Shown here piece after piece: positions 9,332 to 46,932 of a stretch of DNA of 64,000 bases (position 1 is the stretch's first letter; every line of letters starts with the position of its first letter). A model generated the notes under the pieces. It made no database searches. It worked only from the letters and a program-made list of their open reading frames with translations, and was not told the DNA's origin. This DNA is from Parabacteroides sp. Marseille-P3160 (GTDB lineage: Bacteria; Bacteroidota; Bacteroidia; Bacteroidales; Tannerellaceae). Made by a program: the position numbers and the translations under genes. The stretch spans positions 3,755,856 to 3,819,855 of the forward strand of contig NZ_LT799418.1 of NCBI RefSeq assembly GCF_900162725.1. The letters run 5' to 3'.

Positions 9332-9360
9332 TCGGCGTAAATTTATAGTTCGACAATCTA

Positions 9361-29092: not shown

Positions 29093-30538
29093 TTATCCGA
29101 CACTACCTTCCAGAGAAATAGAGAGAAGCTTCTGAGCCTCTACGGCAAACTCCATAGGCAGTTTATTCATTACTTCACGCGCATATCCGTTTACAATCAG
29201 GCCAACGGCTTCTTCAGTCGTTATCCCCCGCTGATTACAATAAAACAACTGTTCTTCGCTAATCTTGCTTGTCGTCGCTTCATGCTCTATGACCGCCGTT
29301 TCATTCTGAATATCGGCATACGGGAATGTATGGGCCCCGCAAGTAGAACTCAACAAAAGGCTGTCGCATTGGCTATGGTTGCGGGCGCCTTCGGCACGAG
29401 GAACAACTTTCACCAAACCGCGATAACTGTTCTGGCTGAATCCGGCGGAAATTCCTTTCGAGACAATCGTACTACGCGTATTCTTCCCCAGATGGATCAT
29501 CTTGGTACCCGTATCGGCCTGTTGGTAATGGTTCGTTACGGCAACCGAATAAAACTCTCCGACCGAATTATCCCCGGCCAAAATGCAACTGGGATATTTC
29601 CATGTAATCGCAGAGCCGGTTTCCACCTGTGTCCAGGAAATTTTACTTCCTTCCCCTTTGCACAAACCGCGTTTGGTTACAAAATTATAAATACCGCCTT
29701 TCCCTTCTTTATCCCCCGGATACCAGTTCTGTACCGTGGAATATTTCACTTCGGCATGTTCCAGGGCGATAATTTCCACAATCGCGGCATGCAGTTGGTT
29801 TTCATCCCGCATCGGAGCTGTACATCCTTCCAGATAACTTACATAAGACTCGTCATCCGCCACAATCAGTGTACGCTCGAACTGTCCCGTATTCGCCGCA
29901 TTAATACGGAAATACGTACTCAGCTCCATCGGACAGCGTACTCCTTTGGGGATATAAACAAACGAGCCGTCCGAAAAGACAGCCGAATTCAACGCCGCAA
30001 AAAAGTTATCCCGGTAACTCACAACGCTGCCGAGGAAGCGTTTTACCAAGTCGGGATGATGCTTGACAGCCTCGCTGAAAGAGCAAAAGATAATTCCTTT
30101 TTCTGCCAGCACGTCTTTAAAAGTCGTCTTGACGGAAACACTATCCATAACGGCATCCACAGCCATTCCGCTCAGAATCTTCTGTTCCTCCAGAGGAATC
30201 CCCAGCTTATCAAATGTCTTCAGCAACTCCGGATCTACTTCATCCAGGTTTTTAGGTCCTTCTTTCCTCCTTGGGGCGGCATAATAAATGATATCCTGAT
30301 AATCGATGGAGGGAATAGACAAATGCGGCCACACGGGCATTTCCATCGTCTGCCAATGCCTATAGGCTTTGAGGCGAAAATCAAGGAGCCACTCAGGCTC
30401 TTCTTTTTTCGCGGAGATCGCCCGGATAATGTCTTCGTTGAGTCCTTTGGGAATCGTATCCGTATCGACGTCCGTGACAAATCCGTATTTATAGTCTCCG
30501 CTTGTTACTTCATTCAGTATATTATTGGAATCTTGCAT
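29093..30538 (-). CDS. sufB: Fe-S cluster assembly scaffold SufB
   Basis: A 481-residue scaffold protein on which new Fe-S clusters form. SufB-specific blocks are [18 protein letters not shown] near the N-terminus, [40 protein letters not shown], and the C-terminal [20 protein letters not shown] with [15 protein letters not shown]. It lies 21 nt after cvpA and 16 nt before sufC. The order sufB-sufC-sufD behind infB is familiar in Bacteroidales. Confidence 0.97.
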
Positions 30539-30559
30539 TACTCATACATCATTAAATAG

Positions 30560-31051
30560 TTATTCTCCTTTATTAAACAAGTCATTCGGATAAATGGTTG
30601 GGACAATATTGCGTACGGTAAAATAAAACCGGGATTCAACCTTCGTTTCCAATGAAATAAAAGAAGATTTGGGATCAAGGACTTCCAATAAGTTCAAAAA
30701 TAAACTTAAAAAAAAGAGGGTTGCAATCAGGCCGAAAACTCCACCGACCAAATGGTTGAATAAACTGAGCGGAGTAACCTCCAATACCCGATGGACAATT
30801 TCACCCGTAGAAACCACAATGCCTACGATCAGCAGGAAAGCCAATACATAACTCCCGATCATCGCCGCTTCCTGTGGGAACCAATCCGATTTAAGCAAAT
30901 GCTCTCTTACCCAGACCGCCACTTCCGCACAAAAATAAATGGCCGCCAATAAGGCTATAAGCGAAATAACCTGTCTGACTAATCCGTCAGACAGGCCTTT
31001 TATCAATCCGATCACTGCCAGACACAACAAACTAATGTCTAACCAGTTCAT
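30560..31051 (-). CDS. CvpA-family membrane protein
   Basis: A 163-residue inner-membrane protein with about four transmembrane segments: WLDISLLCLAVIGLIKGLSD, VISLIALLAAIYFCAEVAVW, MIGSYVLAFLLIVGIVVSTG and LVGGVFGLIATLFFLSLFLN. The GLIKGLSDGLVRQVISL start is typical of CvpA, named for colicin V production in E. coli and later tied to envelope stress and purine-operon contexts; its molecular role is not settled. It sits between infB (9 nt) and sufB (21 nt). Confidence 0.85.
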   Translation of the reverse strand: MNWLDISLLCLAVIGLIKGLSDGLVRQVISLIALLAAIYFCAEVAVWVREHLLKSDWFPQEAAMIGSYVLAFLLIVGIVVSTGEIVHRVLEVTPLSLFNHLVGGVFGLIATLFFLSLFLNLLEVLDPKSSFISLETKVESRFYFTVRNIVPTIYPNDLFNKGE

Positions 31052-31060
31052 ATCCTTTAA

Positions 31061-34000
31061 TTATAAAGTCTTCCGAATTTCCGTCTCCTCAAAAGCTTCA
31101 ATGATGTCGCCTACCTGAATGTCATTATAGTTGGTAAGGGAAATACCGCAATCCAAACCGGCCGTAACCTCCTTCACTTCATCTTTGAAGCGCTTCAAGG
31201 AGGCTATTTCACCTGTATGGATCACAATACCGTCGCGGATCACCCGGACTTTATTGCTTCGCTTGATCTTACCTTCTTTCACGACACATCCGGCAACCGT
31301 CCCTACTTTAGTAATTTTAAATACTTGCTGGACATCCACATTTCCGCATATTTCTTCTTTGATCTCCGGAGACAACATACCTTCCATCGCACTCTTCACC
31401 TCATTGATCGCATCATAGATGATCGAATACAAACGTATTTCGACGCCTTCTTTCTCCGCCATCCGGCGGGCCAATAAGGCCGGTCGTACTTGGAAACCGA
31501 TAATAATCGCGTCGGAAGCGGCCGCAAGAACCACATCCGATTCCGAGATTTGTCCCACCGCCTTATGAATCACGTTCACCTGTATCTCTTCGGTCGACAG
31601 ACGTATCAAGGAGTCCGACAAAGCCTCTACCGAACCGTCCACATCTCCCTTGACAATGACATTCAGTTCCTGGAAGTTTCCGACAGCAATACGCCGTCCG
31701 ATATCATCCAGCGTAAGCATCTTCTGCGTACGCAATCCCAGTTCGCGTTGCAATTGTTCCCGGCGGTTTGCAATTTCACGCGCCTCCTGCTCCGTCTCCA
31801 TCACGTTAAACAGGTCGCCGGCCTGCGGCGCTCCATCTAATCCAAGGATCAGTACCGGTTCCGAAGGACCGGCCGTTTCCACACGCAGGTTACGTTCGTT
31901 GAACATCGCCTTTATGCGCCCGTGATGCGTACCGGCCAGGACGACATCGCCGATCTTCAAAGTCCCGTTCTCAACCAAGATGGTCGCCACGTATCCGCGC
32001 CCTTTATCCAACGACGATTCAATGACGGAACCGCTGGCACGTCTTTTCGGATTGGCTTTCAGATCCAGCAAATCGGCTTCAAGCAACACTTTTTCAAGAA
32101 GTTCCTGAACGCCGATCCCTTTCTTGGCCGAAATTTCCTGACATTGGTACTTTCCTCCCCAATCTTCAACCAGATAATTCATCCCCGCCAGTTCTTCTTT
32201 GATCTTTTCCGGATTAGCATGGGGCTTATCTATTTTGTTAATGGCAAAAACGATCGGAACGCCCGCAGCCGAAGCATGGTTGATCGCTTCAACCGTCTGT
32301 GGCATCACATTATCGTCCGCAGCTATAATGATAATGGCGATATCCGTCACTTTCGCTCCACGGGCACGCATGGCCGTAAAAGCTTCATGCCCCGGCGTAT
32401 CCAGGAAGGTGATGCGCCGCCCGGAAGCCAGTTTTACATTGTATGCCCCGATATGTTGCGTAATCCCTCCGGCCTCACCAGCAATGACGTTTGCATTACG
32501 GATATTATCCAGCAATGATGTCTTACCGTGGTCTACGTGTCCCATGACCGTCACGATCGGCGGACGAGATACCCAATCATCTTCATTATCTTCCTCTTCC
32601 TTGATGGCGTCAATTACTTCGGCGCTCACATATTCGGTCTTGAAGCCGAACTCGTCGGCTACTATATTGATGGTCTCCGCATCCAGGCGCTGGTTGATAG
32701 AAACCATAATACCGATACTCATACAGGTCGAGATAACCTGCGTAACCGGTACATCCATCATGTTCGCCAAGTCGTTGGCGGTAACAAACTCCGTCAGTTT
32801 CAGGATGCGGCTTTCCCTTTCCTCCTGCTCCAACAGTTCATGCTCACGTCTTTCGGCGGCGTCCCGTTTATCCCGGCGGTATTTCGCACCTTTTCCGGCC
32901 TTACTCCCTTTATTGGTCAGGCGGGCTAAGGTTTCCTTGATCTGCTTTTGTACATCTTCCTCATTCACTTCGGCTTTCACCGGTTTCTTCAGATGCTGCG
33001 TGCGGCGTTCATGCGTCGGACGAACGTTCGTGCCCGGAGTATTGGATATATCCACCCGGTCTTTCTTGATCCGCTTCCGTTTCTTCTTTCCGTCCGCGTC
33101 CGCAGAACCTCCGGCGGCATTCTGTGCCGATTTCAGGATTACAACCTTCTTAATGCCCGGAGCGGACGAATGACCCGTTCCATTCTGGTCGGATGTCGAG
33201 GCTGCCGACCGGGCCTTGTGTTCGTTGAATTTTTCCCGTTTCTCTTCCCGTTCTTTTTTCCGTTCTTCCTTGGTCTTCTTTTTAGGGCGGGTAGACTGGT
33301 TCAATGAATCCAGATTGATCTTTCCGGTGACCTTAATCTTCGATTCGAATTTGGGCGTACCGATACGAAAGATCGTTTCTTCCTCCGCCGAAGCGGCTTC
33401 AGGCTCCGCCGGCTTTTCAACGGAAGGAGAAGGAGGCGGTACGGTTTCTTTTTCCGGTTCCTTGGCGACGGTTTTCTCCGGTTCTTTGGCGGCAGCAACC
33501 GGCTCCGTCTTTTCAGCGACTGCAGCCGGCTCTGTGACGGCGGCTTCAGGTTTTACTTTCTTCTCTGATTCCTCCGCTTTACGCACAGGCTCTTCTATTG
33601 TCTTTGTTTCCACGGCCTCTTTTTCTACAGTCTGTTCTTTTTCCGGCGCTTTTTCCTTGGGCTGTTCTTCTTCCTTCGGAGAAGGTTTGCCGGCCAAAAC
33701 GTCTTCCTGTTTATATATATGCACGCGAGGAGCATCCAAATCAATGTGCCCCTTCGTTACTATTTTGGGAATAAATTCTTTTGGTATTTCCGTCTTGATC
33801 AGTTCCGGCTTTTTCTCCTCTTCCTTTTTCTCCTCTTTCTTCGGATGTTTGATTGAAGAGGCAGGTGTAGGCGCCGACGGGGTTATTTGGTTCATCAATC
33901 TTTTCCGTTCCGCTTCGGACAGATCTTTCCCAAACTCATTCACGAGCAAAGTATACTGTTCATCACTGATCTTCATGTTGGGGTTGCTCTCAACAGGAAA

Positions 34001-34081
34001 ACCTTTCCCGTGCAGGAAATCGACGACCGTCGTAATTCCTACGTTCAAGTCTCTTGTTACTTTAATTAATTTTATAGGCAT
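31061..34081 (-). CDS. infB: Translation initiation factor IF-2
   Basis: A 1006-residue GTPase that places initiator tRNA on the 30S subunit. Domains: N-terminal IF2-N ([20 protein letters not shown]), a long charged linker rich in K, E, P and A at about 70-400, a second IF2-N-type segment ([20 protein letters not shown]), then the G domain from about residue 505 with G1 [10 protein letters not shown]3 DTPGHEAF and G4 NKID. The EF-Tu-like domain II, domain III and C-terminal domain with [20 protein letters not shown] follow. The long linker explains the large size and is normal for Bacteroidales. It lies 20 nt after nusA and 9 nt before cvpA. Confidence 0.97.
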
Positions 34082-34101
34082 ATTTTACTTTGTCGTGTTC
34101 T

Positions 34102-35388
34102 TTATTTCTTTGCTTCGTCTTCTCCTCCTTCATCCTCACCCTCAAACTCGGCCGACAGGATAGCAAGGACGTCGTCTACCGTTTGCTCTTCCAGGTCGGC
34201 ACGTTCGATAATCTCTTCGCGTTTCATCGCCAATACCGCTTTCGCGGTATAACAACCGATATTTTTCAACGCATCGATTACCCAGGAGTCGATTTCATCC
34301 GCAAATTCATCCAGGTAAATATCTTCTTCATCCGCGCCTTCCACATCACGGAAGACATCGATCGTATACTCTGTCAACATACAAGCCAGCTTGATATTCA
34401 ATCCTCCTTTTCCGATAGCCAGTGAAACTTCTTCGGGACGAAGAAAGACCTCAGCTCTCTTTTCTTCCTCATTCACCCGAATAGATGAAATTTTGGCAGG
34501 ACTCAAGGCTCGTTGAATGAACAAAGATATATTAGATGTATAGTTAATTACATCTATATTTTCATTTTTTAACTCTCTTACGATTCCATGGATACGGGAA
34601 CCCTTCATTCCGACGCAGGCGCCTACCGGGTCGATCCGGTCGTCATACGACTCGACCGCCACCTTGGCGCGTTCGCCCGGAATACGGGCAATCGCCTTGA
34701 TCGTAATCAGTCCGTCGTTAATTTCAGGTACTTCCAACTCGAACAGGCGTTGAAGGAAGACCTTGTCCGTACGTGAAAGAATGATCTTCGGATTGTTGTT
34801 CACGTTTTCCACCCGTTGTATGACCGCACGTACCGTTTCGCCTTTGCGGTAGAAGTCCGAAGGGATTTGCTCCGATTTGGGAAGCAGCAACTCATTTCCC
34901 TCGTCATCCAGCAACAGGATTTCTTTCTTCCAGACTTGGTACACGTCCGCTGCAATAATGCTTCCGACGCGTTCCTTATATTTAGCGTACAAATTATCCT
35001 TCTGCAATTCAAGTATCTTGGAAGCCAGCGTCTGGCGCAGGTTCAGGATTGCACGACGGCCGAATTTGGCAAAATGTACCTCGTCGGTAACCTCTTCCCC
35101 GACTTCGCAATCCGGATCGATCTCACGCGCTTCACTCAGTTTGGTCTGCAAATTGGCATCCGTCAGTTCATCATCTTCCACGACGATCCGGTTTCTCCAG
35201 ATTTCAAAATCTCCTTTCTCCGGATTGATAATCACGTCATAGTTCTCATCCGTCCCGAACATTTTGGCAATCACATTACGGAATGACTCTTCCAACACAC
35301 TGATCATCGTATCCTTGTCAATATTTTTCAATTCCTTGAATTCCGCCAGCGTATCGATCATGCTGATTGTTTCCTCTTTCTTTGCCAT
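34102..35388 (-). CDS. nusA: Transcription elongation/termination factor NusA
   Basis: A 428-residue RNA polymerase-binding factor for pausing, termination and antitermination. The N-terminal domain (MIDTLAEFKELKNIDKDTMI) is followed by an S1 domain (GSIIAADVYQVWKKEILLLD), then KH domains with RIPGERAKVAVESYDDRIDP, VGACVGMKGSRIHGIVREL and SLAIGKGGLNIKLACMLTEY. A short helical and acidic tail (EFEGEDEGGEDEAKK) ends the protein. It starts 3 nt after the rimP stop. Confidence 0.97.
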   Translation of the reverse strand: MAKKEETISMIDTLAEFKELKNIDKDTMISVLEESFRNVIAKMFGTDENYDVIINPEKGDFEIWRNRIVVEDDELTDANLQTKLSEAREIDPDCEVGEEVTDEVHFAKFGRRAILNLRQTLASKILELQKDNLYAKYKERVGSIIAADVYQVWKKEILLLDDEGNELLLPKSEQIPSDFYRKGETVRAVIQRVENVNNNPKIILSRTDKVFLQRLFELEVPEINDGLITIKAIARIPGERAKVAVESYDDRIDPVGACVGMKGSRIHGIVRELKNENIDVINYTSNISLFIQRALSPAKISSIRVNEEEKRAEVFLRPEEVSLAIGKGGLNIKLACMLTEYTIDVFRDVEGADEEDIYLDEFADEIDSWVIDALKNIGCYTAKAVLAMKREEIIERADLEEQTVDDVLAILSAEFEGEDEGGEDEAKK

Positions 35389-35391
35389 AAT

Positions 35392-35859
35392 TTACTTGAA
35401 TCTAATTAGATATTTTGTCTGTTTTATTTCTTCTTTTTTATAAGTCCGGTCCTCTTCCACGGTAACTTTCCGCTTCACACCTTCCGGTTTTACTTTCTTT
35501 TCGACCGTAAGCACAATCCCCGATTCATCAGCGGATTTAAGGATACCGGTCAGTTTCACTCCGTCATTCAACAGCACCTCCACTTCGTTTCCGATGTTTT
35601 TTACGTACTGCCGGAGCACCTTGAACGGAGCGGTAATTCCCGCCGAACCGACTTCCAACTCATAATCCTCTACATCGCGGTCCAAATGTTCTTCCACATA
35701 GCGGCTCAACTCCACACAATCGTCGATACAGACACCTTCATCATTGTCTATTTCAATCACAATCCGGTTGCCCGCCTTCACCATGACATCCACTAAATAG
35801 TCATCCGAACCGGCCAGCTTCTCCTCCACTATTTGTCTCACTACGCCCTTATCGATCAT
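35392..35859 (-). CDS. rimP: Ribosome maturation factor RimP
   Basis: A 155-residue factor for 30S subunit maturation. Core motifs: VDVMVKAGNRIVIEIDNDEG, CIDDCVELSRYVEEHLDRDV, then YELEVGSAGITAPFKVLRQY (family form EVSSPGxxRPL) and an SH3-like end. The frame is open 19 codons upstream, but ATG 35859 is chosen because the family begins with a MIDKGVVRQIVEEKL-type helix and the upstream piece has no family match. It leads the rimP-nusA-infB-cvpA-sufBCD operon, with a strong promoter 70 nt upstream. Confidence 0.93.
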   Translation of the reverse strand: MIDKGVVRQIVEEKLAGSDDYLVDVMVKAGNRIVIEIDNDEGVCIDDCVELSRYVEEHLDRDVEDYELEVGSAGITAPFKVLRQYVKNIGNEVEVLLNDGVKLTGILKSADESGIVLTVEKKVKPEGVKRKVTVEEDRTYKKEEIKQTKYLIRFK

Positions 35860-35927
35860 ATTGTTTATCCCGTTACAATAAAAGAAGGGGACTACCCGCC
35901 CCCTCCTCATCTTCACTTAATCGCCTG

Positions 35928-35958
35928 CAAATATACAAATCCCTCGTGACTTTGCAAA
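35928..35958 (-). promoter_or_regulatory. Promoter of the rimP-nusA-infB-cvpA-sufBCD operon
   Basis: On the minus strand TTTG (35958-35955), exactly 19 nt, then TATATTTG (35935-35928) form a full Bacteroidales -33/-7 promoter. The expected leader of about 60 nt holds a short GGGG/CCCC hairpin (35884-35900) followed by a T-rich tract just before the rimP start. Confidence 0.78.
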
Positions 35959-36075
35959 ACAATATGAAACAAAAGATTATTCACTATTTTCTATAGAATA
36001 ACGCAGAACCTACCCGACAAGCCGGTAAAAATGGCGGAAGACTTTAATTATACGTATTAAATATGAAAAGCCTTC

Positions 36076-36100
36076 GAAAAAGTGTGAAGGAAATCCTCAC
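36076..36100 (-). terminator. Terminator after the hybrid two-component gene
   Basis: The plus-strand form GTGAAGGAAATCCTCAC gives a 7 bp stem with one bulged A and a tiny loop. On the minus strand it lies 24 nt past the regulator's stop and is followed by a run of five T, so it should end that transcript before the rimP promoter. Confidence 0.6.
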
Positions 36101-36124
36101 AGGGCGTAAGTCATACGGATTTTG

Positions 36125-39100
36125 TCAACTTCCGCCCTCTTTACGGTCACGGAACTCGCGGGGGGTGACGCCGAATTGCTTTTTGAAAATGCGGCTGAAG
36201 TAGGCTGGATTCGTGAAACCCAATTGATAGGCTATCTGGGCTATCGGGTTCTGTACCTTCTCTTCATCCAGCAAAAGCATGGCTTTATTCATCTTCAGGC
36301 GGAGCACATAATCATTGGGAGTCAGCCCTGTAATCCGTTTGACCTGGTTGAACAGGTGGGTGCGCCCGATTTTTAACTCGCAGCTCCATAAGTTCACGTC
36401 AAAGTTAGGATCCGAAAGATGTTGCAGGATGACGCGATCGGCAGCTTCCAGGAAAAGCCGGTCTTTCGGGTTGGTTCCTCTGATGAGCGGTTCGTTTTCG
36501 ATGCTTTTCTCCAGGTTAAGCAGGCGTTTGCTATTCCGCACCAATTTATTACATTGCAGGAAAAGAAGTTCCATATCAAACGGCTTCTCGATATATTCAT
36601 CGGCACCGCGCCGGATGCTATCCACTTTCTGCTCGAAAGAAGGTTGGGCAGCCAATAAGACTACCGGAATATGGAGCGTCTTCACATTCGTCTTCAACAT
36701 TTCACACATTTCGAGTCCGGACAAACGGGGAATATTGATTTCGCTCAGGATGATGTCGGGTTGCTCTGAGATGGCATATTGATAGGCCTGCTCTCCGTCT
36801 TTAATGATGTTCACCTCATAGATCAAAGAAAGGGAATCTTTCAAGAGGAGTAAAATCTCATCATCATTATCCACCAGGAGCATTTTGAAAAGCTTGTTAC
36901 CTTTGGATTCGCCCCCCCACTCTTCGGTAAGCTCTTCGGCATCCCGGTCGACGACCAATCGTTCCATCAACTCGAGCGGTGCAACCGGTTCCGGAAATTC
37001 TTCCAGTTCATCCTGGTCGAAATGGGAATTGCCTAAACGAAGTGAAATCACGAACACAAGTTTGTCCTCCTCCTTTTCAGCCCGGATAGATCCTTTATGC
37101 AGTTGTATGATTCCCCGGCTGAAAGCCAGGCCGATTCCCCGGTCGGAAAACAGAGTAATACCTTCTTTTTTGCTTTCTTCCGGATGATTGAAGTCCTCTA
37201 TGAACTGTTCCACGCCGGACAGATCATAGTCCGACAATTGGTAGCCGATCCGTATCTCCATCTTGTTATTTTTACGCTGTACGCTCATTACGACCTCTCC
37301 CTTGGGCGGTGTCGCTTTAAATGCCGTCGACAACAAATTATAAAAGACCTTTTGCATCTGGGCCGGATCAAACCAGATATAAAGTCCGTCATTCGCCCCG
37401 AGAAACCGGCAATTCACCTTCTTTTCGGCTGTATATTCGGAGAAACTGCCCAAAATCTCCTGGACAAACTGGGAGATATTGGCCGTCCTTACCTTTAGGC
37501 GCAAGCTGCCGGATTCCATTTTGCGAAAATCCAGTAATTCCGTCATCAATTCCTGTAGCCTCACCACCTGTCTCCGGATGCGCTCGATGCGCCCCTTCCC
37601 GATCTGGGAAGTGTCATGCATCAGCCGGTCCAAAGAAGCGACGATCAGGGTCAACGGCGTGCGGAACTCATTGGATATATTGGTAAAGAATTCTATTTTA
37701 TGTTTGTTGACTGTCTCGATCCGTTCCAATTCTTTTTTTTCCAGGGCCAATGATATCTTCAACCTCGACCGGCTGCGATAGAAACGGACAATCCAGTAGA
37801 TAAGGGCAAAAATCAAAAAGGAATAAAGGGCAATCGCCGGGAGAGAGAGCCAATATGGGGACTTCACGACAATCTCCAATTGAATCCGGCGTGCCGGATC
37901 GGCTTCTTCCCTGACAATGAGGTGATAAATTCCCGGGCGAAGGGAATTGTATACGATTGTATTATGCTCGGCCGGTGTCCATAACTTGTCTAATCCCTCC
38001 AACTTATATTCATAAGTCGTAAAAGAGGAAGACAAGTAGTTGGTAGAAGCAAAAGTCAGGCTAATCGAGTTCTTGGAATAGGGCAACACGATTTTTTTAG
38101 TCGCGAGGATGCTTTTCGGCAGAAGAGGGGTAGAAGCCTTGACAGGTTTGTTGTTGACGGAAAGGGAAGAGAAAAACATCGGATAGTCCATATTACTATT
38201 GATCATATCCCGCTCGGAAAAAGAGAACAAACCATAAAGTCCGCCGACATAAATCCGGTCTTCATGCGGAGAGGCGTAGAGACCGCAATCTCCGCTGAAT
38301 CCGGTCAGCGGTAACGCTTTCCCAAACGGCAGATGGCGGGGAGAAAGTAACTTTCCGTCGGGAGAAACATTCAGTATCGTCAATCCCCGGTTGCTCGTCA
38401 CCACAAGACTGCCATACAGGGTAAAAGTCATGCAATAACAGATATCGCTCAGCAACAGTCCATTCTCCCGGTTAATCAGGGAAAAAGAATTTTTATCGGC
38501 ATGATAACGCAAAAGACCGGAACGTAAAGTCATAAAGTACAAACCTTTTTCGGCACTTCCTCCTATCTGAAGGATTGCGCTGGGGATGATGCTGTTTTCG
38601 CTCAGTCCGTCGCCGTAAAAGGCGGAAACCTGGTTTGTCCGCAGATTAATCGTAAATAATCCTTTCAAATGGGAAGAAACCCACATCACATCCCTTTCAT
38701 CCACAAAAACCGTACGGACGATGCCCGAAGTCATCTCTCTCAATTCCTCCGACTCGAAGAAGAAAGATATTCCCTGGGTTTTCCGGTTCATTTTAAACAA
38801 GCCATTCTGAGTCAACAGGATCAAATCGCCCTTATAGGGAATGATTTCTTCGATTATCCGCTGGTAAGTATCTGTCATTACCCTATCGATCACAGGATAA
38901 ATGCGTTTGGTACTCCCGTCCCGGCAGTAAAGTCCTTTCATATAGACACTCATGTACAGGCGGTCATATTCTTTGTCATACCACAAGGCGCGGATCTTAT
39001 CGTGCGGCAAACCGCCGGGAGCCGAAACGATATGGCCAACCTGCTTGTTACCTTTCCGGAGGATGTTTATTCCACTTCCTTCGGTTGCAATATATAAGGT

Positions 39101-40130
39101 ATTCGCCCGGTCTTCCACGATTTGTCCGAGCACTACGCCATGCATGGAATTTACATCGTTTTCCTGCGTCGGATAATAGTCGTAATTGTCTATCGCCGGA
39201 TTGAAATAACGGACATCGCCGTAATAAGATCCGATCCACAAAGATCCCTGCCGGTCGGAGTGCAAGTCAAAGATGCTGGATCCCTTCAATAAATATTCAT
39301 CCAGGACGGCTTCCCGGGAACCTTCCTCCAAGCTTAGGCGATAAAGCCCCGAAAGCGTTCCAACCCAGAAAGACCCTTTTGCATCTTCTTCCATACAATA
39401 AATCTCATCACGGATAACGCCGTCTTTACAAACCGGAGTGAAGAGAGTGAACCTCCCCATCTCCTGCGGTTTAGCTACATAAATTTGTTTGGAACGGCAG
39501 GCAGCCCACAATCTCCCATGGGAATCATGCAGTAAATAGGATATAAATTCACCGTGCAAACCGGTGGAGATTGTTTTCTTTTTCACCGGATCGACCAGAT
39601 AGATGCCGGCTGTCGTACCAATGCCGAAACGTTTATTTCCAAGGGAAACCATGGAAGTCGGATCTATGGCATCCGGAGTAAAAGAATAGATGGTTTCCCC
39701 CGCTTTCTTCGCCGGATTATACCTAATATAATACATTCTTATTGGCATAATACAATTCACCGCCTTCGCTACAAATGACATCGGTCTGAATACCGGTCAA
39801 CACAAATTGCTCGGTAATCAGGTTAAAGTAAAGCAACTTGTCCTCCGCTAAAAAATAGAGCAGGGAATCCGTTCCGCAAAAGGCATGAATATCGGCATCG
39901 ATCACCTCCCTGAAATATTCGGACAACTTGTATACCTTCACATTCACTCCATCATAACAGTTAAGGGCGTCATTGCCCAACCAGATTCTTCCCCATCCGT
40001 CCTGCCAGATAGAGATAGCGGAAGATTGCGAAAGTCCCTGTAAACTTCCCAAGGTTTGAAAATGGTAATCTTTAGCAGCCAAAAAACAAACCGCAAGGTT
40101 AAAAAAAACAAATAAAAAGCTTTTTTTCAT
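36125..40130 (-). pseudogene. Hybrid two-component system (HTCS) with one frameshift and lost phosphorylation residues
   Basis: One gene read in two frames: residues 1-135 from 40130 to the TAG at 39725-39723, and the rest in the +1-shifted frame down to 36125. Dropping one T near 39724-39727 joins NKNVLY to RYNPAKK and gives about 1334 residues, the usual HTCS length. Domains: signal peptide, propeller repeats (LQGLSQSSAISIWQDGWGR), Y_Y_Y domain, transmembrane segment (AIALYSFLIFALIYWIVRFY), HisKA, HATPase, receiver and an intact AraC helix-turn-helix (IAQIAYQLGFTNPAYFSRIF). The phosphoacceptor His is Asn (NISNEFRTPLT, codon 37670-37672), the N-box Asn is Thr (LLSTAFK, 37325-37327), the receiver Asp is Glu (DIILSEINIP, 36740-36742) and the receiver Thr is Ala (VVLLAAQPS). 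It likely regulated the divergent susCD pair. A sequencing error could explain the frameshift but not the substitutions. Confidence 0.85.
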
Positions 40131-40196
40131 ACTCGAAAAATAAAAACAAATAACGATTCGGATTGCGAAAACGACCCCAATACTATTCTTTTCGTA

Positions 40197-40204
40197 CAAA
40201 AATA
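40197..40204 (-). promoter_or_regulatory. Probable -7 box of the HTCS gene
   Basis: On the minus strand TATTTTTG fits TAnnTTTG, 66 nt before the HTCS start. No clean TTTG lies at the -33 distance. It falls in the 242-nt divergent gap shared with susC of PUL-2, which is otherwise AT-rich. Confidence 0.4.
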
Positions 40205-40337
40205 TGAATATTTCATACGCACAATAAAATTGTACTGTTAAATACTAAATAAAACTAGGCATAAAACGTACAAATCTATAGTTTTACCTTAAATCATATA
40301 TATACGCCATATTTATTTTTTTTTGTTTTTATTGATT

Positions 40338-40362
40338 TATCGTAAAAATATTATCGTAAAAA
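40338..40362 (+). repeat. Tandem TATCGTAAAAA direct repeat before PUL-2 susC
   Basis: TATCGTAAAAA occurs at 40338-40348 and again at 40352-40362, a 14-nt period, ending 10 nt before the susC start. It overlaps the untranslated leader and ribosome-binding zone. It could be a regulator site or a translation-enhancing leader; nothing similar precedes the other two susC genes. Confidence 0.5.
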
Positions 40363-40372
40363 GAGAATCATT

Positions 40373-43300
40373 ATGTTAAAAATCAAACGACCAGTCAGCT
40401 TATTTTTATTAGTTGCTTCATTGAGTTTGCCGATGGTAAGCTACGCTGAAAGCCAAACAAATCCTGGAAATACAGCGATTTCCCAACAAAAGAAGAAGGT
40501 TACCGGAACGATCCGTGATGTTTCCGGTCCGGTAGCAGGCGCTTCCATCGTCATTCCGGGAACGAGCAGCGGGGCCATTAGCGACTTGGATGGAAAGTTC
40601 AGCTTAGAAGTAAAGGAAGGTGAATCGATTCAGGTTTCATTCCTTGGGTACCAAACTCAATTAATTAAATTTACGGGACAAACGTCATTGGATATTATAT
40701 TGATTGAAGATTCTCATGCCTTGAATGAAGTTGTTGTAACCGCTTTAGGAATCCAGAAAGACGCTAAAAAATTAGGCTACGCCGTAAGTACGATCTCAAG
40801 TGAAGATCTGATCAAAACAGGGACACCCAACTTTGCCACCTCTTTATATGGTAAAGCATCCGGAGTACGTATCCAGGCGGCTCCGGGCGGAAGCACTTCC
40901 GCGGTTTCCATTAACATTCGCGGATTAAGCTCTATTACAGGAACAAACCAGCCGTTGATTATTGTGGACGGGGTACCTATTCGTAATGGAGAGGCCAATA
41001 ACGACGGTTACTGGACCGATCAGCGCGTAAACAGCAATGGTTTGGTAGATATCAATCCGGAAGATATTGAAAGCCTTTCTATCCTTAAAGGAGCATCCGC
41101 CTCGGCATTATACGGCTCGGAGGCAGCCAACGGTGTCGTGATGATCACGACGAAAAGCGGTAAAGGAACTTCCGGTATAGGAGTCGATTTCAGTGCTAAT
41201 GTCAGCTTTGACAACGTGGCCTATATGCCCGAGATTCAAACTGTATTTGGGCCTGGTTATCCGGCAAGGTATATGAGTAATTCTTATGAAATTTCCAGCG
41301 GAGGATTTATTCAAAGAGAAGTAAACGGGCAACAGGTAAAATCCATACGCAGAACGTCCGTACAATTCGGACCTAAATACGATGGAAGTGACGTATATTA
41401 TTGGGATGGCGAATATCGCCCGTATAATGCCATCACCCGTAACCAGTGGAAAGACATTTTCCGCACGGGTATTAATCAAACTTATAATGTAGCTATTACA
41501 CAAGGAAGTGAAAAAAGCAATACACGTTTTTCTTATACTTATGCAGATAACCGTCCGACACAGTATAACAGCTCCTATAATAAGCATAATTTCAATCTTG
41601 TCGGAAGTAATTCTTTAAATGAAAAAATAAAAATTGATTATACCGTCAACTATATTCGTCAGGATATTGAAAACCGCCCCTATCGGATCTCCCGTTTGAC
41701 CAACAATTATGGAGGTATGTTCGGCTCTTTTGAAGATGTCGCTTTGATCCGTGAAAAAACGGTAACCAGCTTGGGCTATAAAAACACCTACGGAACGAAT
41801 AGAACATTGACACCTGACGAATCGTTTGCTTGGCAACCCTATGGATGGGCTTTGCTGGATGAATATTTCTGGAATATTTTAGGGCGTAAACAGGCGGAAG
41901 AAAATAACCGTTTAATCGCCAGTGTTACTCCGACCTGGAAAATTATTGACGGTTTGACATTGCGCGGACGTGCAGCGACCGATTTTACTTCCGAAAAAAT
42001 TGAGAAAATGGAGAATACGGAAAGTCCCATTGCTTTCGGAACATATACCGGATATTACGGACTGAACAATAAGCGCTATGAAATCTATTATAGCGATGTT
42101 CTATTGATGTATGATAAACAATTGACTGATAAAATCGGATTAACGGCTAATGTCGGCTGGCAAGGACGTATGGAAAAAGCATTTAACAGCGAAGTAGGTA
42201 CGAACGGAGGTTTGTCTGTAGAAAACTGGTTCCATATCAATGCCAGCAAAAATGCAAAAAATGCCAATATGTTAAAGCAGGAATTCATGAAAACAGCTCT
42301 TTTAGGAACATTGAGTTTATCTTACGATAATTATTTATACTTGGAAGGAACCCTTCGCCAAGAAAAGATATCCACTCTTTCCAAAGGAAATAACTCCTAT
42401 ACCTATCCGTCTGTAAACGGAAGTTTCATCTTTACGGAAGCATTGAAGGACAGCAAACCCGATTGGTATGATTATGGGAAAGTACGCGTTTCTTACGGTA
42501 TTGTAGGTAATGCTCCGGAAATATACAAAGCTGTTCAAGCCTACAATCAAAGTACATTCGAAGGTTATATCTATAATAATGTAGATGGAAAATTAGGAAA
42601 TGAAACAATTCGTCCGGAAGAAAAACATGAACTTGAATTCGGTTTGGAAAGTAAATTTTTCAATAACCGTTTAGGATTTGAAATTTCTTATTATACAAAC
42701 AAAGTAAAAGATCAAATTCTTGAAACAACAATGCCTCAATCCGCCGGAGGAACATCGATCTTGTTAAACGTAGGAGAATTACAAAACAACGGGCTGGATA
42801 TTTCGGTTTATGGAACTCCTGTTGAGACGAAAGATTTCCGTTGGGATCTTCGAGGGAACCTTTCATTCAACAAAAACAAGGTGAACAAACTACAAAATGG
42901 ATTAACCGAGTTGGTCCACACGACTTGGGACGGGGCAGTTGAATTAAAATCCATCGTAGGAGAATCGATGGGTGATCTCTATGCCTATGTCCCCAAAGAA
43001 GATGCGAACGGCAATAAAATAGTTGATGAAGAAGGCTTGTATATAGTGGATTATACCGAACGCAAAAAAGTAGGAAATGCCATGCCGAAAGCTATAGGTG
43101 GTATCGGAACTTCTTTCAATTATAAGAATTTCTTTGTGGATGCAACCGTCGATTTCCGTATCGGAGGGGCTGTATTAAACCAACCATACCAATATATGAT
43201 GAATATCGGTAACATTGTAGAATCTTTAGATTATCGTGACGCCGCACATGGAGGTCTGACTTATTATTTTGAAGGAAATGACGTAGCCGGAGGCAAAACC

Positions 43301-43729
43301 ATTGCAACCAGGGCATCCGCCGGTCCTAACGGAGAAAAAGTATATGATAACGGAGTGATCCTTCCGGGAGTAAAAGAAAATGGTTCCGCGAACGATATCA
43401 TTGTTCCTTCCGACTTCTATTATGCAGAACAATACGGCTGGGGATCATCAGGCTACGTAACATACGAGAAGTCTATCATAGATAACAGCTATGTGAAATT
43501 CCGCGAGCTATCTTTAGGATATAGCCTCCCGAAGGTTATCGCCTCCAAATTAGCTTGTAAAAACCTGACGTTATCCGTTTATGGTCGTAACCTGTTTTAC
43601 ATTTACAAGAAAATGCCTTCTATGGATGCAGAGGCTACGGATGGTACTTCCTGGCAATCACAAACAGTGATCGGAGGTTCCACGGCAACAACCCGGACAT
43701 TCGGCCTATCCTTACGTGCAAGTTTCTAA
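40373..43729 (+). CDS. SusC/RagA-type TonB-dependent transporter without STN domain (PUL-2)
   Basis: A 1118-residue outer-membrane glycan importer. Order: signal peptide (PVSLFLLVASLSLPMVSYAE), carboxypeptidase-D-like domain at about 40-115 (VTGTIRDVSGPVAGASIVIP), TonB-box-like ALNEVVVTALGIQK, plug with IRGLSSITGTNQPLIIVDGV and IESLSILKGASASALYGSEA, and a beta barrel ending in RTFGLSLRASF. It has no STN domain, which fits control by the adjacent divergent HTCS instead of an ECF/FecR pair. No glycosidase gene lies beside it, so the substrate cannot be guessed. Confidence 0.94.
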   Translation: MLKIKRPVSLFLLVASLSLPMVSYAESQTNPGNTAISQQKKKVTGTIRDVSGPVAGASIVIPGTSSGAISDLDGKFSLEVKEGESIQVSFLGYQTQLIKFTGQTSLDIILIEDSHALNEVVVTALGIQKDAKKLGYAVSTISSEDLIKTGTPNFATSLYGKASGVRIQAAPGGSTSAVSINIRGLSSITGTNQPLIIVDGVPIRNGEANNDGYWTDQRVNSNGLVDINPEDIESLSILKGASASALYGSEAANGVVMITTKSGKGTSGIGVDFSANVSFDNVAYMPEIQTVFGPGYPARYMSNSYEISSGGFIQREVNGQQVKSIRRTSVQFGPKYDGSDVYYWDGEYRPYNAITRNQWKDIFRTGINQTYNVAITQGSEKSNTRFSYTYADNRPTQYNSSYNKHNFNLVGSNSLNEKIKIDYTVNYIRQDIENRPYRISRLTNNYGGMFGSFEDVALIREKTVTSLGYKNTYGTNRTLTPDESFAWQPYGWALLDEYFWNILGRKQAEENNRLIASVTPTWKIIDGLTLRGRAATDFTSEKIEKMENTESPIAFGTYTGYYGLNNKRYEIYYSDVLLMYDKQLTDKIGLTANVGWQGRMEKAFNSEVGTNGGLSVENWFHINASKNAKNANMLKQEFMKTALLGTLSLSYDNYLYLEGTLRQEKISTLSKGNNSYTYPSVNGSFIFTEALKDSKPDWYDYGKVRVSYGIVGNAPEIYKAVQAYNQSTFEGYIYNNVDGKLGNETIRPEEKHELEFGLESKFFNNRLGFEISYYTNKVKDQILETTMPQSAGGTSILLNVGELQNNGLDISVYGTPVETKDFRWDLRGNLSFNKNKVNKLQNGLTELVHTTWDGAVELKSIVGESMGDLYAYVPKEDANGNKIVDEEGLYIVDYTERKKVGNAMPKAIGGIGTSFNYKNFFVDATVDFRIGGAVLNQPYQYMMNIGNIVESLDYRDAAHGGLTYYFEGNDVAGGKTIATRASAGPNGEKVYDNGVILPGVKENGSANDIIVPSDFYYAEQYGWGSSGYVTYEKSIIDNSYVKFRELSLGYSLPKVIASKLACKNLTLSVYGRNLFYIYKKMPSMDAEATDGTSWQSQTVIGGSTATTRTFGLSLRASF

Positions 43730-43773
43730 TGGTATAATATAAAAGGAACAGATTAATCAAAAAATTAAAGAAA

Positions 43774-45339
43774 ATGAAACAGATATTATTAATTATACTA
43801 GCATGTGCAGCCATGATCTCTTTCAATGCCTGCAGTGATTCGGATTATACAGACCGTTATCCAGACCCATCCAAGACATCAAACGTTTCTTGTGAAAAAC
43901 TGATGACAGGAATTTTTCAGGCAGGCAATACTTATACATTATCTTCCTACTACCGCTATTTTACTTTCGAGACCCAACAAATCGGAAAATTCGCCCAAAC
44001 CATGGGTTTCACCAATGAAAAAGGAATGTATCTTGGTATGGGTGAATCTTATAATAACGACCGATGGAAGAATTTCTATAATGTCTTAACTCAATACCGG
44101 TTATTGGAATATACGTATAATAATTTACCGGAGGATGAGAAATCGGACTATGAAGTATTCGTACTGCTTTCAACCATTTACCTATACGATCATTTGCAAC
44201 AGATTGTCGATTTATGGGGAAATGTTCCTTTCAGTGAAGCCGGTTACTTGGCGATCACAGGTGATGTTGCGAATTCTTACCCCTCTTATGAAACGGCGGA
44301 AAGCATCTATGAAACGATGTTGGACGAATTGCAGAATATCAATACCAAGTTGGCTTCCATGACCAATCTCTCCACATTGACCAGTACTTACCTGACCACT
44401 CAGGATTACATTAATGGCGGAGACCTTTCTTTATGGAGAAAATATGCGAATTCCTTGCGTTTACGTATGGCTTTACGGGTATCTGAAAACGGATCATTAA
44501 CTTCCAAAGGTAAATCCGTGATTAACGAAATCTTATCCGATCCGTCCACTTATCCCGTAATCGAGAATAATAATGAAAATACCATCATCCAAACGGCCGG
44601 ATATGGAATTGACTTTAAAGTCCTTGACGAAATCCGTGAAGGTTTCGAATCATGGGCCGGACAATGTAACCGCGCCTCAGCCACAATGGTAACCAACCTG
44701 ACAGGAGATCCCCGCCTGGATATCATCTACGATAAGAACGGAAGCGGTCAATACATTGGCATGAATACGACCGAAACGGAAGCGGAACAAACGATCAACT
44801 TCAACAAAGGCGATTACTATTCTGCGGTAGATACGGCAACCTTCAGCCGAAACGAAGAAATGCCGGGCGTAATTATGACTGCGGCCGAAGTAGACTTTAT
44901 CAAAGCGGAAGCCTTCCAAAAAGGATATGCTTCCGGGGATGCCAAAGCGGCATTTGAAGCAGGGGTCAAGCATTCTATCGAATTATATTACGAGATCAAC
45001 GCTACGGCTACTTACCGTACTCCGACTACCGCTCCGTCCAATACGGAAATTGCCGCTTTTGCCGCTTCCAAATGGGACGCCTATCCTTCCAAAGAAATCG
45101 CCATCGGCACCCAGAAATGGCTGCATTTCAGCTTACTACAAATGGTTCAGGCATGGAGTGACATTCGGAGGACAGGCATTCCGGCTCTTTTCTTCCAGGT
45201 TGACAACGCCACAGCCGATTGCCCGAATGTTCCGGACCGTCTGCGTTATCCGACTGATGAAAAGAATAGTAACCCTATCAAATATGCAGAAGTTCAGGCA
45301 AACGATACCTATTACAATAAACTATTCTGGGCAAAATAG
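43774..45339 (+). CDS. SusD-like glycan-binding lipoprotein (SusD_like 2 type, PUL-2)
   Basis: A 521-residue surface lipoprotein (lipobox SFNAC, C20) that pairs with the SusC encoded 44 nt upstream. Blocks such as NDRWKNFYNVLTQYRLLEYT, YEVFVLLSTIYLYDHLQQIV, DLWGNVPFSEA and DLSLWRKYANSLRLRMALRV are typical of the SusD_like 2 branch, with C-terminal YPSKEIAIGTQKWLHFSLLQ. This branch is often found with STN-less SusC proteins. A strong terminator follows, so the PUL-2 transcript probably contains only these two genes. Confidence 0.9.
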   Translation: MKQILLIILACAAMISFNACSDSDYTDRYPDPSKTSNVSCEKLMTGIFQAGNTYTLSSYYRYFTFETQQIGKFAQTMGFTNEKGMYLGMGESYNNDRWKNFYNVLTQYRLLEYTYNNLPEDEKSDYEVFVLLSTIYLYDHLQQIVDLWGNVPFSEAGYLAITGDVANSYPSYETAESIYETMLDELQNINTKLASMTNLSTLTSTYLTTQDYINGGDLSLWRKYANSLRLRMALRVSENGSLTSKGKSVINEILSDPSTYPVIENNNENTIIQTAGYGIDFKVLDEIREGFESWAGQCNRASATMVTNLTGDPRLDIIYDKNGSGQYIGMNTTETEAEQTINFNKGDYYSAVDTATFSRNEEMPGVIMTAAEVDFIKAEAFQKGYASGDAKAAFEAGVKHSIELYYEINATATYRTPTTAPSNTEIAAFAASKWDAYPSKEIAIGTQKWLHFSLLQMVQAWSDIRRTGIPALFFQVDNATADCPNVPDRLRYPTDEKNSNPIKYAEVQANDTYYNKLFWAK

Positions 45340-45363: not shown

Positions 45364-45401
45364 AAAAGCCTGATGAAGAATCATCTTCATCAGGCTTTTT
45401 T
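45364..45401. terminator. Bidirectional terminator between susD (PUL-2) and the nitrilase-fusion gene
   Basis: AAAAGCCTGATGAAGA, a four-base loop ATCA, and TCTTCATCAGGCTTTT form a 16 bp stem flanked by T-runs on both strands. It serves the two convergent genes; on the minus strand it begins next to the nitrilase-fusion stop codon. Confidence 0.88.
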
Positions 45402-46932
45402 ATTTCTTCAGTTTCAACTCGTACAAATCCCTTCGCCGGTTCCGCAGGTTGCGGACGCTACCGTAGGTATGCAGTTCGTTCAGCAAATCCAGTTCAACAT
45501 CCGAGATCAGGATCATTTCCGTATTCGGCGTCGCCTCGGCACGCTTCCCGTCCGTAGGAAAAGCAAAATCACAAGGCGTAAAGACTGCACTCTGGGCATA
45601 CTGGATATCCATGTTATGCACGCGGGGAAGGTTACCGACACAGCCGGCGATAACCACATAACATTCGTTTTCGATCGCCCGGGATTGGGCACAGACCCGC
45701 ACGCGCGAGTAGCCGTTTTGCGTATCGGTCACGAAAGGAACGAAAAGGATCTGCATCCCCTGCTCCGCCATGATGCGGGAAAGTTCGGGGAACTCGATAT
45801 CATAACAAATCAAGACACCGATCTTGGCGGAATCCGTCTCGAAGGTCTGTATCTTCTTCCCTCCCGTCAACCCCCAGCTCTTCACCTCGTCCGGCGTCAC
45901 ATGGATCTTTTCGTAGCTTTCCACGCTTCCGTCGCGGCGGCAAAGGAATCCGACATTATAAAGCTCTTCCCCCCGTAGCTGAGGCATACTTCCCGTAATG
46001 ATGTTGATATTATAGCTGATGGCCAGATTAATGAAACGATGCCTTATTTCCTCGGTATACTGGGCTAACTCCCGGATCGCCTGGGATTCCCCCAGATGAT
46101 TGAAGGCCGCCATCAGGGGAGCATTGAAATACTCCGGAAAAAGAATAAAATCGCTTTTATAATCACTCACGGCATCGACAAAGAACTCCACTTGTTCGAA
46201 CAGTCCGTCCATATTCCGGTAAGGGCGCATTTGCCACTGGACCAATCCGACCCGGACACTCGTTTTCTGCGTGGTAATATCCTGCGTCGGCGGCTGGTAA
46301 TAGATATTATCCCATTGCAGCAGGCAGGCGTAGTGCTTGGACTCTTCATCGTTGGGCAGGTAATTGGTCATCACCTTCCGTACATGGAAGTCGTTGGAAA
46401 GTTGGAAAGTCAGCACCGGGTCGTAAATCTCACGCTTGCGCACCTTATCGATGTATTCCTTCGGCTTTATTTCGTCGGCATACAGGTGATAATTGGGTAT
46501 GCGCCCGCCGAACATGATCGCTTTCAGGTTCAGTTTTTCGCATAGCTCCTTCCGGTAGTCGTACATCCGCCGCGCCAGGCGCAACGAACGGTATTCCGGA
46601 TGGATGAAGACCTCGATGCCGTACAGGATATTCCCGTTCGGGTTATGCGTATCGAACGTTTCGTTCCCGGTGACCTGGGCATAGGTGTGATCCCCCTTGA
46701 CCATATTATAATCGACAATGATGGATAGCGCGCAGCCGACGATTTTATCATCCGCCACCGTGACAACCTGCCCTTCCGGGAAAATCCGTATCAGGGTTTC
46801 AATTTGATGGTAAGTCCAAAACACATCGCTCCCATCCGTATATACCCGCGTAAAAGATTGGGCCAATTGATTGTAGTCCTCAATTTGCAGGAGACGCACA
46901 AAAACTTTATTAATATTCCTTTCCGGTTCCAT
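45400..46932 (-). CDS. GNAT acetyltransferase-carbon-nitrogen hydrolase fusion
   Basis: A 510-residue cytoplasmic two-domain protein. Residues about 10-200 form a GNAT domain (GIEVFIHPEYRSLRLARRMY, FGGRIPNYHLY). Residues about 225-500 form a nitrilase-superfamily amidohydrolase with the complete catalytic triad E267 (ILFPEYFNAP), K342 (YEKIHVTP) and C376 (GVLICYDIEFPE). Such fusions occur widely in Bacteroidetes, annotated as bifunctional; the substrate is not known to me. A linked acylation/deacylation of an amine is a reasonable inference. It is a single gene with its own promoter at 46953-46986 and a leader under 20 nt. Confidence 0.88.
   Translation of the reverse strand: MEPERNINKVFVRLLQIEDYNQLAQSFTRVYTDGSDVFWTYHQIETLIRIFPEGQVVTVADDKIVGCALSIIVDYNMVKGDHTYAQVTGNETFDTHNPNGNILYGIEVFIHPEYRSLRLARRMYDYRKELCEKLNLKAIMFGGRIPNYHLYADEIKPKEYIDKVRKREIYDPVLTFQLSNDFHVRKVMTNYLPNDEESKHYACLLQWDNIYYQPPTQDITTQKTSVRVGLVQWQMRPYRNMDGLFEQVEFFVDAVSDYKSDFILFPEYFNAPLMAAFNHLGESQAIRELAQYTEEIRHRFINLAISYNINIITGSMPQLRGEELYNVGFLCRRDGSVESYEKIHVTPDEVKSWGLTGGKKIQTFETDSAKIGVLICYDIEFPELSRIMAEQGMQILFVPFVTDTQNGYSRVRVCAQSRAIENECYVVIAGCVGNLPRVHNMDIQYAQSAVFTPCDFAFPTDGKRAEATPNTEMILISDVELDLLNELHTYGSVRNLRNRRRDLYELKLKK

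What the first reader, a model, noticed from the sequence alone, without database searches (positions are those of the whole stretch)
36740..37672. HTCS with every phosphorelay residue replaced
The histidine kinase phosphoacceptor is Asn (37670-37672, AAT; one base from CAT), the N-box Asn is Thr (37325-37327), the receiver Asp is Glu (36740-36742, GAA) and the receiver Thr is Ala. The AraC DNA-binding part is intact. Asp-to-Glu in a receiver can mimic phosphorylation. So the protein may be a phosphorylation-independent or constantly active regulator of PUL-2 rather than a normal HTCS. The loss of several independent residues on one path is unlikely to be chance in a gene otherwise open for over 1200 codons.
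Basis: partly seen in the sequence, partly recalled or inferred. Interest (0 to 1): 0.75.

Follow-up and report, generated by a model that had tools for sequence, protein, structure and literature searches.

The report
Sugar-sensing regulator with dead phosphorelay
A bacterium and at least a dozen relatives carry a nutrient-uptake regulator that has lost the key residues of the phosphate relay its family normally uses, yet keeps its sensor, its DNA-binding part and its likely DNA target site, so it probably works without phosphorylation.

Summary
The HTCS at 36125-39781 (-) has Asn for the kinase His, Thr for the N-box Asn, Glu for the receiver Asp and Ala for the receiver Thr. The G1-box Asp, the second acidic receiver residue and two of the S/CHIP-DK contacts that restrain the DNA-binding domain in ordinary HTCSs are also replaced. 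The lost phosphoacceptors are not recent decay: 16 further loci share His-to-Asn, all 16 lack the N-box Asn, 15 have Glu at the receiver Asp and one Lys. The 17 form one clade (100/99; sensor-only tree 96/95). The sister pair has lost the ATP-site residues but keeps His and Asp. Five pairs of clade members show purifying selection on dead kinase and receiver (dN/dS 0.08-0.18). All 15 HTCS/susC intergenic regions examined hold a 21-bp direct repeat of TCGTAC type, the spacing published for HTCS operators. Most likely it is a phosphorylation-independent, membrane-bound regulator of the adjacent susCD pair; 'constantly active' is possible but not shown. Caveat: here the first ~135 codons lie in another frame, and Ala for Thr is unique to this copy, so this copy may be broken or misassembled.

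The parts
36125..39781 (-). Pseudo-HTCS main open frame (1218 codons): propeller sensor, Y_Y_Y, HisKA, HATPase_c, receiver, AraC-type HTH_18
39726..40130 (-). 5' part of the same gene in another frame: start codon (inferred), signal peptide (by eye), first propeller residues; 60% identical to L061 up to the frame break
37508..37699 (-). HisKA domain; phosphoacceptor His replaced by Asn704 at 37670-37672
37037..37369 (-). HATPase_c domain; N-box Asn replaced by Thr819 (37325-37327), G1 Asp replaced by Tyr847 (37241-37243)
36563..36880 (-). Receiver domain; phosphoacceptor Asp is Glu1014 (36740-36742), acidic DD2 is Asn972 (36866-36868), switch Thr is Ala1044 (36650-36652), Lys1066 and Tyr1063 kept; alpha3-beta4 loop LHIP instead of S/CHIP
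36143..36379 (-). AraC-type DNA-binding domain (HTH_18); contact Lys of S/CHIP-DK is Gln1146 (36344-36346)
40189..40218 (.). Putative operator: direct repeat TTTTCGTAC ... TTTCATAC, period 21 bp, between the HTCS and susC; the exact pattern TCGTAC-N15-TCATAC occurs once in this genome
40373..43729 (+). susC-like TonB-dependent transporter, divergent from the HTCS; likely target
43774..45339 (+). susD-like lipoprotein (SusD-like_2); the next annotated gene (45400-46932) is on the other strand; genes beyond it were not annotated by me

Best explanation
The gene belongs to an evolutionarily stable clade of 'pseudo-HTCSs'. They descend from ordinary hybrid two-component regulators but by sequence carry neither a working kinase nor a phosphorylatable receiver. 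SHOWN from sequence: shared loss of His, ATP-site residues and receiver Asp, with a single origin on the tree for His-to-Asn; retention of sensor, domain order, most switch Lys and all switch Tyr residues, and DNA-binding domain; a conserved HTCS-type repeat beside susC; purifying selection in the clade pairs tested. INFERRED: the protein acts as a membrane-bound one-component regulator. Ligand binding to the periplasmic propellers is passed through the membrane helix and the dead HisKA/receiver scaffold by conformation, and this positions two AraC-type domains on the 21-bp direct repeat to control the divergent susC-susD pair. Loss of the full S/CHIP-DK clamp and the fixed Glu in the receiver would let the DNA-binding domain work without phosphate. 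Whether the default state is on or off is open. For the window's copy this applies only if the frame break is an assembly error or is bypassed.
For: Shared loss, one origin. His-to-Asn in 17 of 19 clade rows (17 of 17 in the inner clade, over 7.3 substitutions per site of tree); N-box Asn and G1 Asp lost 19 of 19; receiver Asp lost 17 of 19 (16 Glu, 1 Lys). Intermediate L061/L062 (His, Asp and DBD Lys kept; ATP-site residues and S/C lost) as sister of the 17. Purifying selection: dN/dS in kinase 0.08-0.18 and receiver 0.095-0.17 for five pairs among L052, L053, L054 and L055, L056, L058, about the level of the sensor of the same pairs (0.12-0.15). Window keeps 162 of 172 columns that are invariant in 13 other members. 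Repeat: 15 of 15 regions (13 of the 17, plus L061, L062) score 9-12 of 12 at period 21; mean best score 10.73 at 21 against 7.5-8.7 at the 21 other periods from 12 to 33; HTCS motifs average 21 bp (PMC3878776). Full S/CHIP-DK in 0 of 19 clade rows; altering that motif gave DNA binding without phosphate in BT4124 and BT4663 (PMC11253607). AlphaFold2 of receiver plus DNA-binding domain: pTM 0.53 for the window, 0.80 for the canonical paralogue L049, 17 sequences each; PMC11253607 reports lower pTM for most non-consensus HTCSs.
Against: dN/dS in the dead domains is higher than in six canonical pairs (kinase 0.03-0.095, receiver 0.02-0.07); the sensor is raised too (0.12-0.15 against 0.04-0.09), so the whole gene evolves less tightly. 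One clade relative is a relict with many stops (L115 = L165), the window copy has a frame break and alone has Ala at the switch Thr. The stricter operator pattern found no site in five of eleven clade genomes, the window's among them, and two of its seven sites lie elsewhere. The half-site consensus was read from the same sequences it was tested on. Full S/CHIP-DK is absent in 37 of 79 scorable non-clade rows as well, so that motif alone is weak. The two AlphaFold2 runs used different alignments, and a pTM difference is only an indirect sign of domain docking. No expression or binding data exist here.
Confidence: 0.6

Rival explanations
1. Locked-on regulator: Glu in the receiver mimics phospho-Asp and the lost clamp frees the DNA-binding domain, so susCD is expressed whatever the ligand.
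For: Glu in 16 of 17 with Lys kept in 15 of 17 and Tyr in 17 of 17; Glu as phospho-mimic in many response regulators (PMC12632262 section 18); the full S/CHIP-DK clamp is lost.
Against: Sensor still conserved and under purifying selection, which a locked regulator would not need; window has Ala for the switch Thr; L051 has Lys in place of Glu; PMC12632262 notes that the hypothesis was disproved in some pseudo-receivers.
Confidence: 0.2
2. The window copy is a pseudogene in early decay: the frame break removes the signal peptide, so no working sensor is made.
For: Frame break between the 5' part and the main frame; longest end branch of the 19 clade rows (0.88); most deviations at columns invariant in other members, 10 of 172, next highest 9 of 171; Ala for the switch Thr, seen in no other of the 17; a relict relative exists (L115).
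Against: 1218 codons without a stop; both sides of the break keep conserved sequence (60% identity to L061 in the 5' part); the losses of His, ATP-site Asn/Asp and receiver Asp are old and shared, so they do not come from this decay; the repeat beside susC is still present.
Confidence: 0.15
3. Partner protein: the pseudo-HTCS pairs with a canonical HTCS and inhibits or tunes it, as DivL does for CckA, instead of acting alone.
For: Pseudo-histidine kinases with partner roles are known (PMC4211667, PMC9430884: start of abstracts in the listing only); the genome holds canonical paralogues (L049, L050).
Against: The AraC domain and a repeat beside its own susCD are conserved; the closest canonical paralogue in the genome is only 33-35% identical; no second HTCS-like frame in the 8.6-19.6 kb regions read.
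Confidence: 0.07

Closest known systems
Bacteroidetes hybrid two-component systems (HTCS), e.g. BT4124, BT4663
   Same: Domain order, neighbouring susC/susD, 21-bp direct-repeat operator type, phylogenetic nesting among them
   Different: No phosphoacceptor His, no ATP-site N-box Asn or G1 Asp, no receiver Asp, no full S/CHIP-DK clamp
BT4236 of B. thetaiotaomicron (CSIP-EK, Gln for the kinase His; PMC11253607, section 11 part 1 read)
   Same: An HTCS lacking the kinase His, for which the authors suggest a phosphorylation-independent mechanism
   Different: Gln rather than Asn, different loop motif; state of its ATP site and receiver Asp not seen by me; no clade, intermediate or operator described in what I read
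Pseudo-receiver / aspartate-less receiver proteins (PMC12632262: abstract, passages, sections 6 and 18; PMC4395418: passages only)
   Same: Receiver Asp replaced, most often by Glu; other conserved receiver positions altered
   Different: Here the receiver sits in the same chain as an equally dead kinase
DivL pseudo-histidine kinase
   Same: Called a pseudo-histidine kinase; kinase fold kept without the usual His (the latter recalled)
   Different: DivL regulates CckA (start of abstract in listing); the present protein carries its own DNA-binding domain

Membership tests
HTCS (by descent and architecture) | Reg_prop propellers, Y_Y_Y, HisKA, HATPase_c, receiver, AraC HTH in one chain | tested here: met
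   Pfam, (Y_Y_Y at 26.3 bits, just under its cut-off of 26.6)
HTCS (by descent and architecture) | Nested among canonical HTCSs in a tree | tested here: met
HTCS (by descent and architecture) | Next to susC/susD | tested here: met
HTCS (by descent and architecture) | Direct-repeat operator with about 21-bp spacing | tested here: met
   (sequence only; binding not assayed); comparison PMC3878776
HTCS (by descent and architecture) | N-terminal signal peptide and membrane placement | tested here: inconclusive
   By eye in the N-termini of relatives; in the window it lies in another frame; no signal-peptide program was run
Phosphorelay HTCS (working two-component system) | Phosphoacceptor His in HisKA | tested here: not met
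   Asn704
Phosphorelay HTCS (working two-component system) | ATP-site N-box Asn and G1 Asp | tested here: not met
   Thr819, Tyr847
Phosphorelay HTCS (working two-component system) | Receiver Asp | tested here: not met
   Glu1014
Phosphorelay HTCS (working two-component system) | S/CHIP-DK receiver/DNA-binding-domain contacts (present in most, not all, HTCSs) | tested here: not met
   LHIP, Asp, Gln
Pseudo-histidine kinase | Recognised kinase domain lacking one or more catalytic functions | tested here: met
   (sequence only; activity not assayed)
Pseudo-receiver | Recognised receiver domain without its phosphorylation site | tested here: met
Phosphomimetic, constitutively active regulator | Activity without signal or phosphate | not testable with these tools
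   needs expression or binding assay

The most novel reading that the evidence does not exclude
HTCSs have given rise to a lineage of phosphate-free, signal-responsive transmembrane transcription factors: a dead histidine kinase and a dead receiver serve only as a mechanical link from periplasmic glycan sensor to DNA, with an extant intermediate showing that ATP binding was lost before the phosphoacceptors.
Probability: 0.45. Interest if true: 0.75.

Novelty: new variant of a known kind. Interest (0 to 1): 0.6.

Why it matters
HTCSs are a major class of regulators of glycan use in gut Bacteroidetes, and how one chain carries a signal from periplasm to DNA is unsettled. A natural, conserved clade that appears to have no phosphate chemistry, with a half-way relative and a shared operator type, lets one ask directly what phosphorylation adds and whether conformation alone suffices. 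It also warns that HTCS annotation does not imply a kinase.

Tried and rejected
Recent decay as the source of the lost phosphoacceptors: rejected, because 16 other loci share them in one clade. Window as sister of L061/L062: they share the gene order SufB-CvpA-IF-2-NusA-RimP-HTCS-susC-susD (names by sequence from reading, not from a family search), but both trees put the window inside the 17 instead. His-to-Asn as a common HTCS variant: a DNA pattern for N-E-x-R-T-P H-boxes hit 8 of 393 Bacteroidales genomes; two hits are clade members, and of the other six, four lie in non-HTCS kinases or hybrid kinases and two in non-kinase frames. In the family, a looser pattern hit 19 of 123 genomes at 22 sites: 15 in clade members of the tree, one in the relict G005, and six in frames that are not kinases. 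These patterns miss L067 (Ala after Asn), would miss L075 (Phe before Asn), and miss any other replacement of His, for example Gln as in BT4236. PDB fold search listed ordinary receiver and response-regulator chains first for both models and did not bear on the question. The genus search gave no sister species. First extraction script misread strands and was redone.

Limits and dropped rows: one search scored at most five candidates a genome at E <= 1e-150, so further members may exist. Trees used 35, 33 and 21 rows. The 27 canonical rows were chosen by me from the 84. The repeat test used 15 of 19 clade loci: L052, L053, L054 and L058 have no susC directly beside the HTCS. The leave-one-out test used 14 of 17, without the near-copies L053, L054, L056. 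Of 14 pairs, I used 11 (five clade, six canonical, some of the latter with dS above 1); L057/L060 and L064/L066 are saturated, and L061/L062 gives kinase 0.03, receiver 0.05. Whether the HTCS has other targets was looked at only with two operator patterns.

Full report
WHAT WAS CHECKED. The finding names four replaced phosphorelay residues in an HTCS on the minus strand. The open frame is 36125-39781, 1218 codons. Pfam finds propeller repeats, Y_Y_Y (just under cut-off), HisKA, HATPase_c, Response_reg and HTH_18. All four residues are as stated: Asn704, Thr819, Glu1014, Ala1044. The table adds Tyr847 for the G1 Asp, Asn972 for the second acidic receiver residue, and Leu1036/Gln1146 where ordinary HTCSs have Ser/Cys and Lys. 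Lys1066, Tyr1063 and Asp1107 are kept.

The minus-strand frame 39726-40199 holds a start codon (inferred at 40128-40130), a signal peptide (by eye) and the first propeller residues, and ends where the main frame takes up the homology. It is 60% identical over 119 residues to L061, higher than the 43% of the main frame. All 17 relatives from L051 to L067 have one frame of 1324-1380 residues, stop to stop. So this copy has a frame break: a recent mutation or an assembly error. The three other matches of this genome listed are open.

A CLADE, NOT A DECAYING GENE. Searches of 60 relatives and 123 genomes of the family and of named genomes gave 18 further close homologues (41-46% identity): L051-L067, all in the same family, and L075, from a record named Bacteroides sp. 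Eight of the 18 have named records: Tannerellaceae, Tannerella, Parabacteroides, Porphyromonadaceae and Bacteroides MAGs. Of the 19 including the window, 17 have Asn for His, 19 lack the N-box Asn, 19 lack the G1 Asp, and 17 lack the receiver Asp (16 Glu, 1 Lys). Of the 84 other aligned HTCS-type rows, 81 have His, N-box Asn and receiver Asp; the rest are partial or lack those domains. A likelihood tree of 35 rows makes the 17 one clade (100/99), with one change of the His state. A tree from the sensor alone, which contains none of the trait columns, agrees (96/95). The sister pair L061/L062 keeps His, Asp and the DNA-binding-domain Lys but has lost N-box Asn and G1 Asp; next come canonical L068-L070. 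The order of loss therefore seems to be ATP site first, then both phosphoacceptors and the clamp Lys (inference from the tree). A further row, L009, has the G1 Asp changed to Asn, but 9 of the 84 other rows, L009 among them, have Asn there, so I make nothing of it. A fragment of one more member (L104) has Glu in the receiver.

CONSTRAINT. Within the 17, Asn is unchanged in 17 of 17 over 7.3 substitutions per site of tree length, while 9.6% of kinase columns are invariant. dN/dS (Nei-Gojobori, my script) for L052/L053, L052/L054, L053/L054, L055/L056 and L055/L058 is 0.08-0.18 in the kinase, 0.095-0.17 in the receiver and 0.12-0.15 in the sensor. Six canonical pairs give 0.03-0.095, 0.02-0.07 and 0.04-0.09. 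So the dead domains are under purifying selection, weaker than in canonical HTCSs, and so is the sensor. The window deviates at 10 of 172 columns invariant in 13 other members, the highest of 14 but close to L052's 9 of 171. As a yardstick, PMC12632262 (sections 6 and 18 read) gives a missing His in 722 of 76,471 HisKA domains and a missing Asp in 3,111 of 152,269 receivers.

THE TARGET SITE. In 15 clade loci where HTCS and susC are divergent (13 of the 17 and L061, L062), the region between them holds a direct repeat of TCGTAC type with a period of 21 bp: score 9-12 of 12 in all 15, at most 5 of 1000 shuffles as good in 14, 29 of 1000 in L063. Over periods 12-33 the mean best score peaks at 21 (10.73; others 7.5-8.7). 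With a longer half-site the window is the weakest (p 0.023; 0 of 300 shuffles in the 14 others); with the 6-base core it scores 11 of 12 at 40189-40218. The half-site was first seen by eye in these sequences, so the shuffle counts flatter it; the period is the independent point. PMC3878776 (passages read) reports direct repeats averaging 21 bp for 16 B. thetaiotaomicron HTCSs. L068-L070 show a repeat of another half-site at the same period, by eye. In the window's genome the exact pattern TCGTAC-N15-TCATAC occurs once, at this place; allowing one mismatch gives 17 sites against 20 for the reversed control. A stricter family pattern hit 7 sites in 6 of 11 clade genomes (control 1); five lie at these loci, two elsewhere; none was found in G000, G003, G023, G060 or G109.

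THE CLAMP. PMC11253607 (abstract, passages, and sections 7, 8, 10 and 11 part 1 read) proposes that in most HTCSs a receiver loop S/CHIP and a D and K of the DNA-binding domain hold the latter inactive, and shows that changing the loop allows DNA binding without phosphate. Taking the K 39 residues after the D, as in BT4124, none of 19 clade rows has the full motif, against 42 of 79 scorable other rows; among the 27 canonical rows I chose, each position is kept in 25-27. AlphaFold2 models with 17 sequences each gave pTM 0.53 for the window and 0.80 for the canonical paralogue L049. That fits loose domains, as the paper reports for most non-consensus HTCSs, but is indirect.

CONTEXT. In the window the regulator stands next to susC and susD (SusD-like_2); the next gene is on the other strand and encodes a carbon-nitrogen hydrolase with a GNAT domain. 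Genes beyond it were not annotated. Across the clade, susC falls into two groups that are about 27-41% identical to each other, plus a separate L061/L062 type. On the HTCS tree the two groups, scored in 13 loci, need at least 4 changes. So regulator and operator type were kept while the transporter was exchanged, or the loci were re-paired.

WHAT IT MOST LIKELY DOES. The best reading is a signal-responsive, phosphorylation-independent membrane regulator of susCD. A locked-on regulator is the main rival; a decayed copy in this genome is a separate possibility that does not touch the clade. I found one published statement close to this: BT4236 with Gln for His (PMC11253607). My paper searches (open-licence PubMed Central only, top rows of each listing seen) showed no paper on an HTCS clade without phosphorelay residues; subscription papers were not searched. 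PMC3404733 was looked at in passages only and not used. Domain names follow Pfam; box names (N, G1) and the DivL details beyond the listing are recalled.

On recounting I corrected the receiver dN/dS range, named L075 as not shown to be of the same family, added the sensor dN/dS, L104 and the six sites (read), and marked Ala for Thr as unique to this copy.

Noticed in passing
window 39700-39760: Frame break inside the HTCS gene: conserved sensor sequence continues in another frame on each side. Mutation or assembly error cannot be told apart here.
   Followed up: partly
L051, L055-L057, L063, L067 against window, L059, L060, L064-L066, L075: The susC partner of this regulator clade belongs to two unlike groups; the HTCS tree needs at least 4 exchanges while regulator and operator type stay.
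   Followed up: partly
L115 around 8000-10125 (same place as L165): Relict clade relative with Asn H-box and many stops in all three forward frames.
   Followed up: partly
L151, L153, L154, L155: Non-HTCS histidine kinases or hybrid kinases with Asn in place of the phosphoacceptor His.
   Followed up: no
L133 (Segatella paludivivens): HTCS-like protein whose H-box position is Ser and which shows no receiver in the alignment.
   Followed up: no
window 29093-45339 and L061, L062: Gene order SufB, CvpA, IF-2, NusA, RimP, HTCS, susC, susD is shared with L061/L062, although the trees place those two outside the window's clade.
   Followed up: yes
L068-L070, HTCS/susC intergenic region: A different 21-bp direct repeat (GGTAATATCCGTC type) upstream of susC in the canonical outgroup (by eye).
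   Followed up: no
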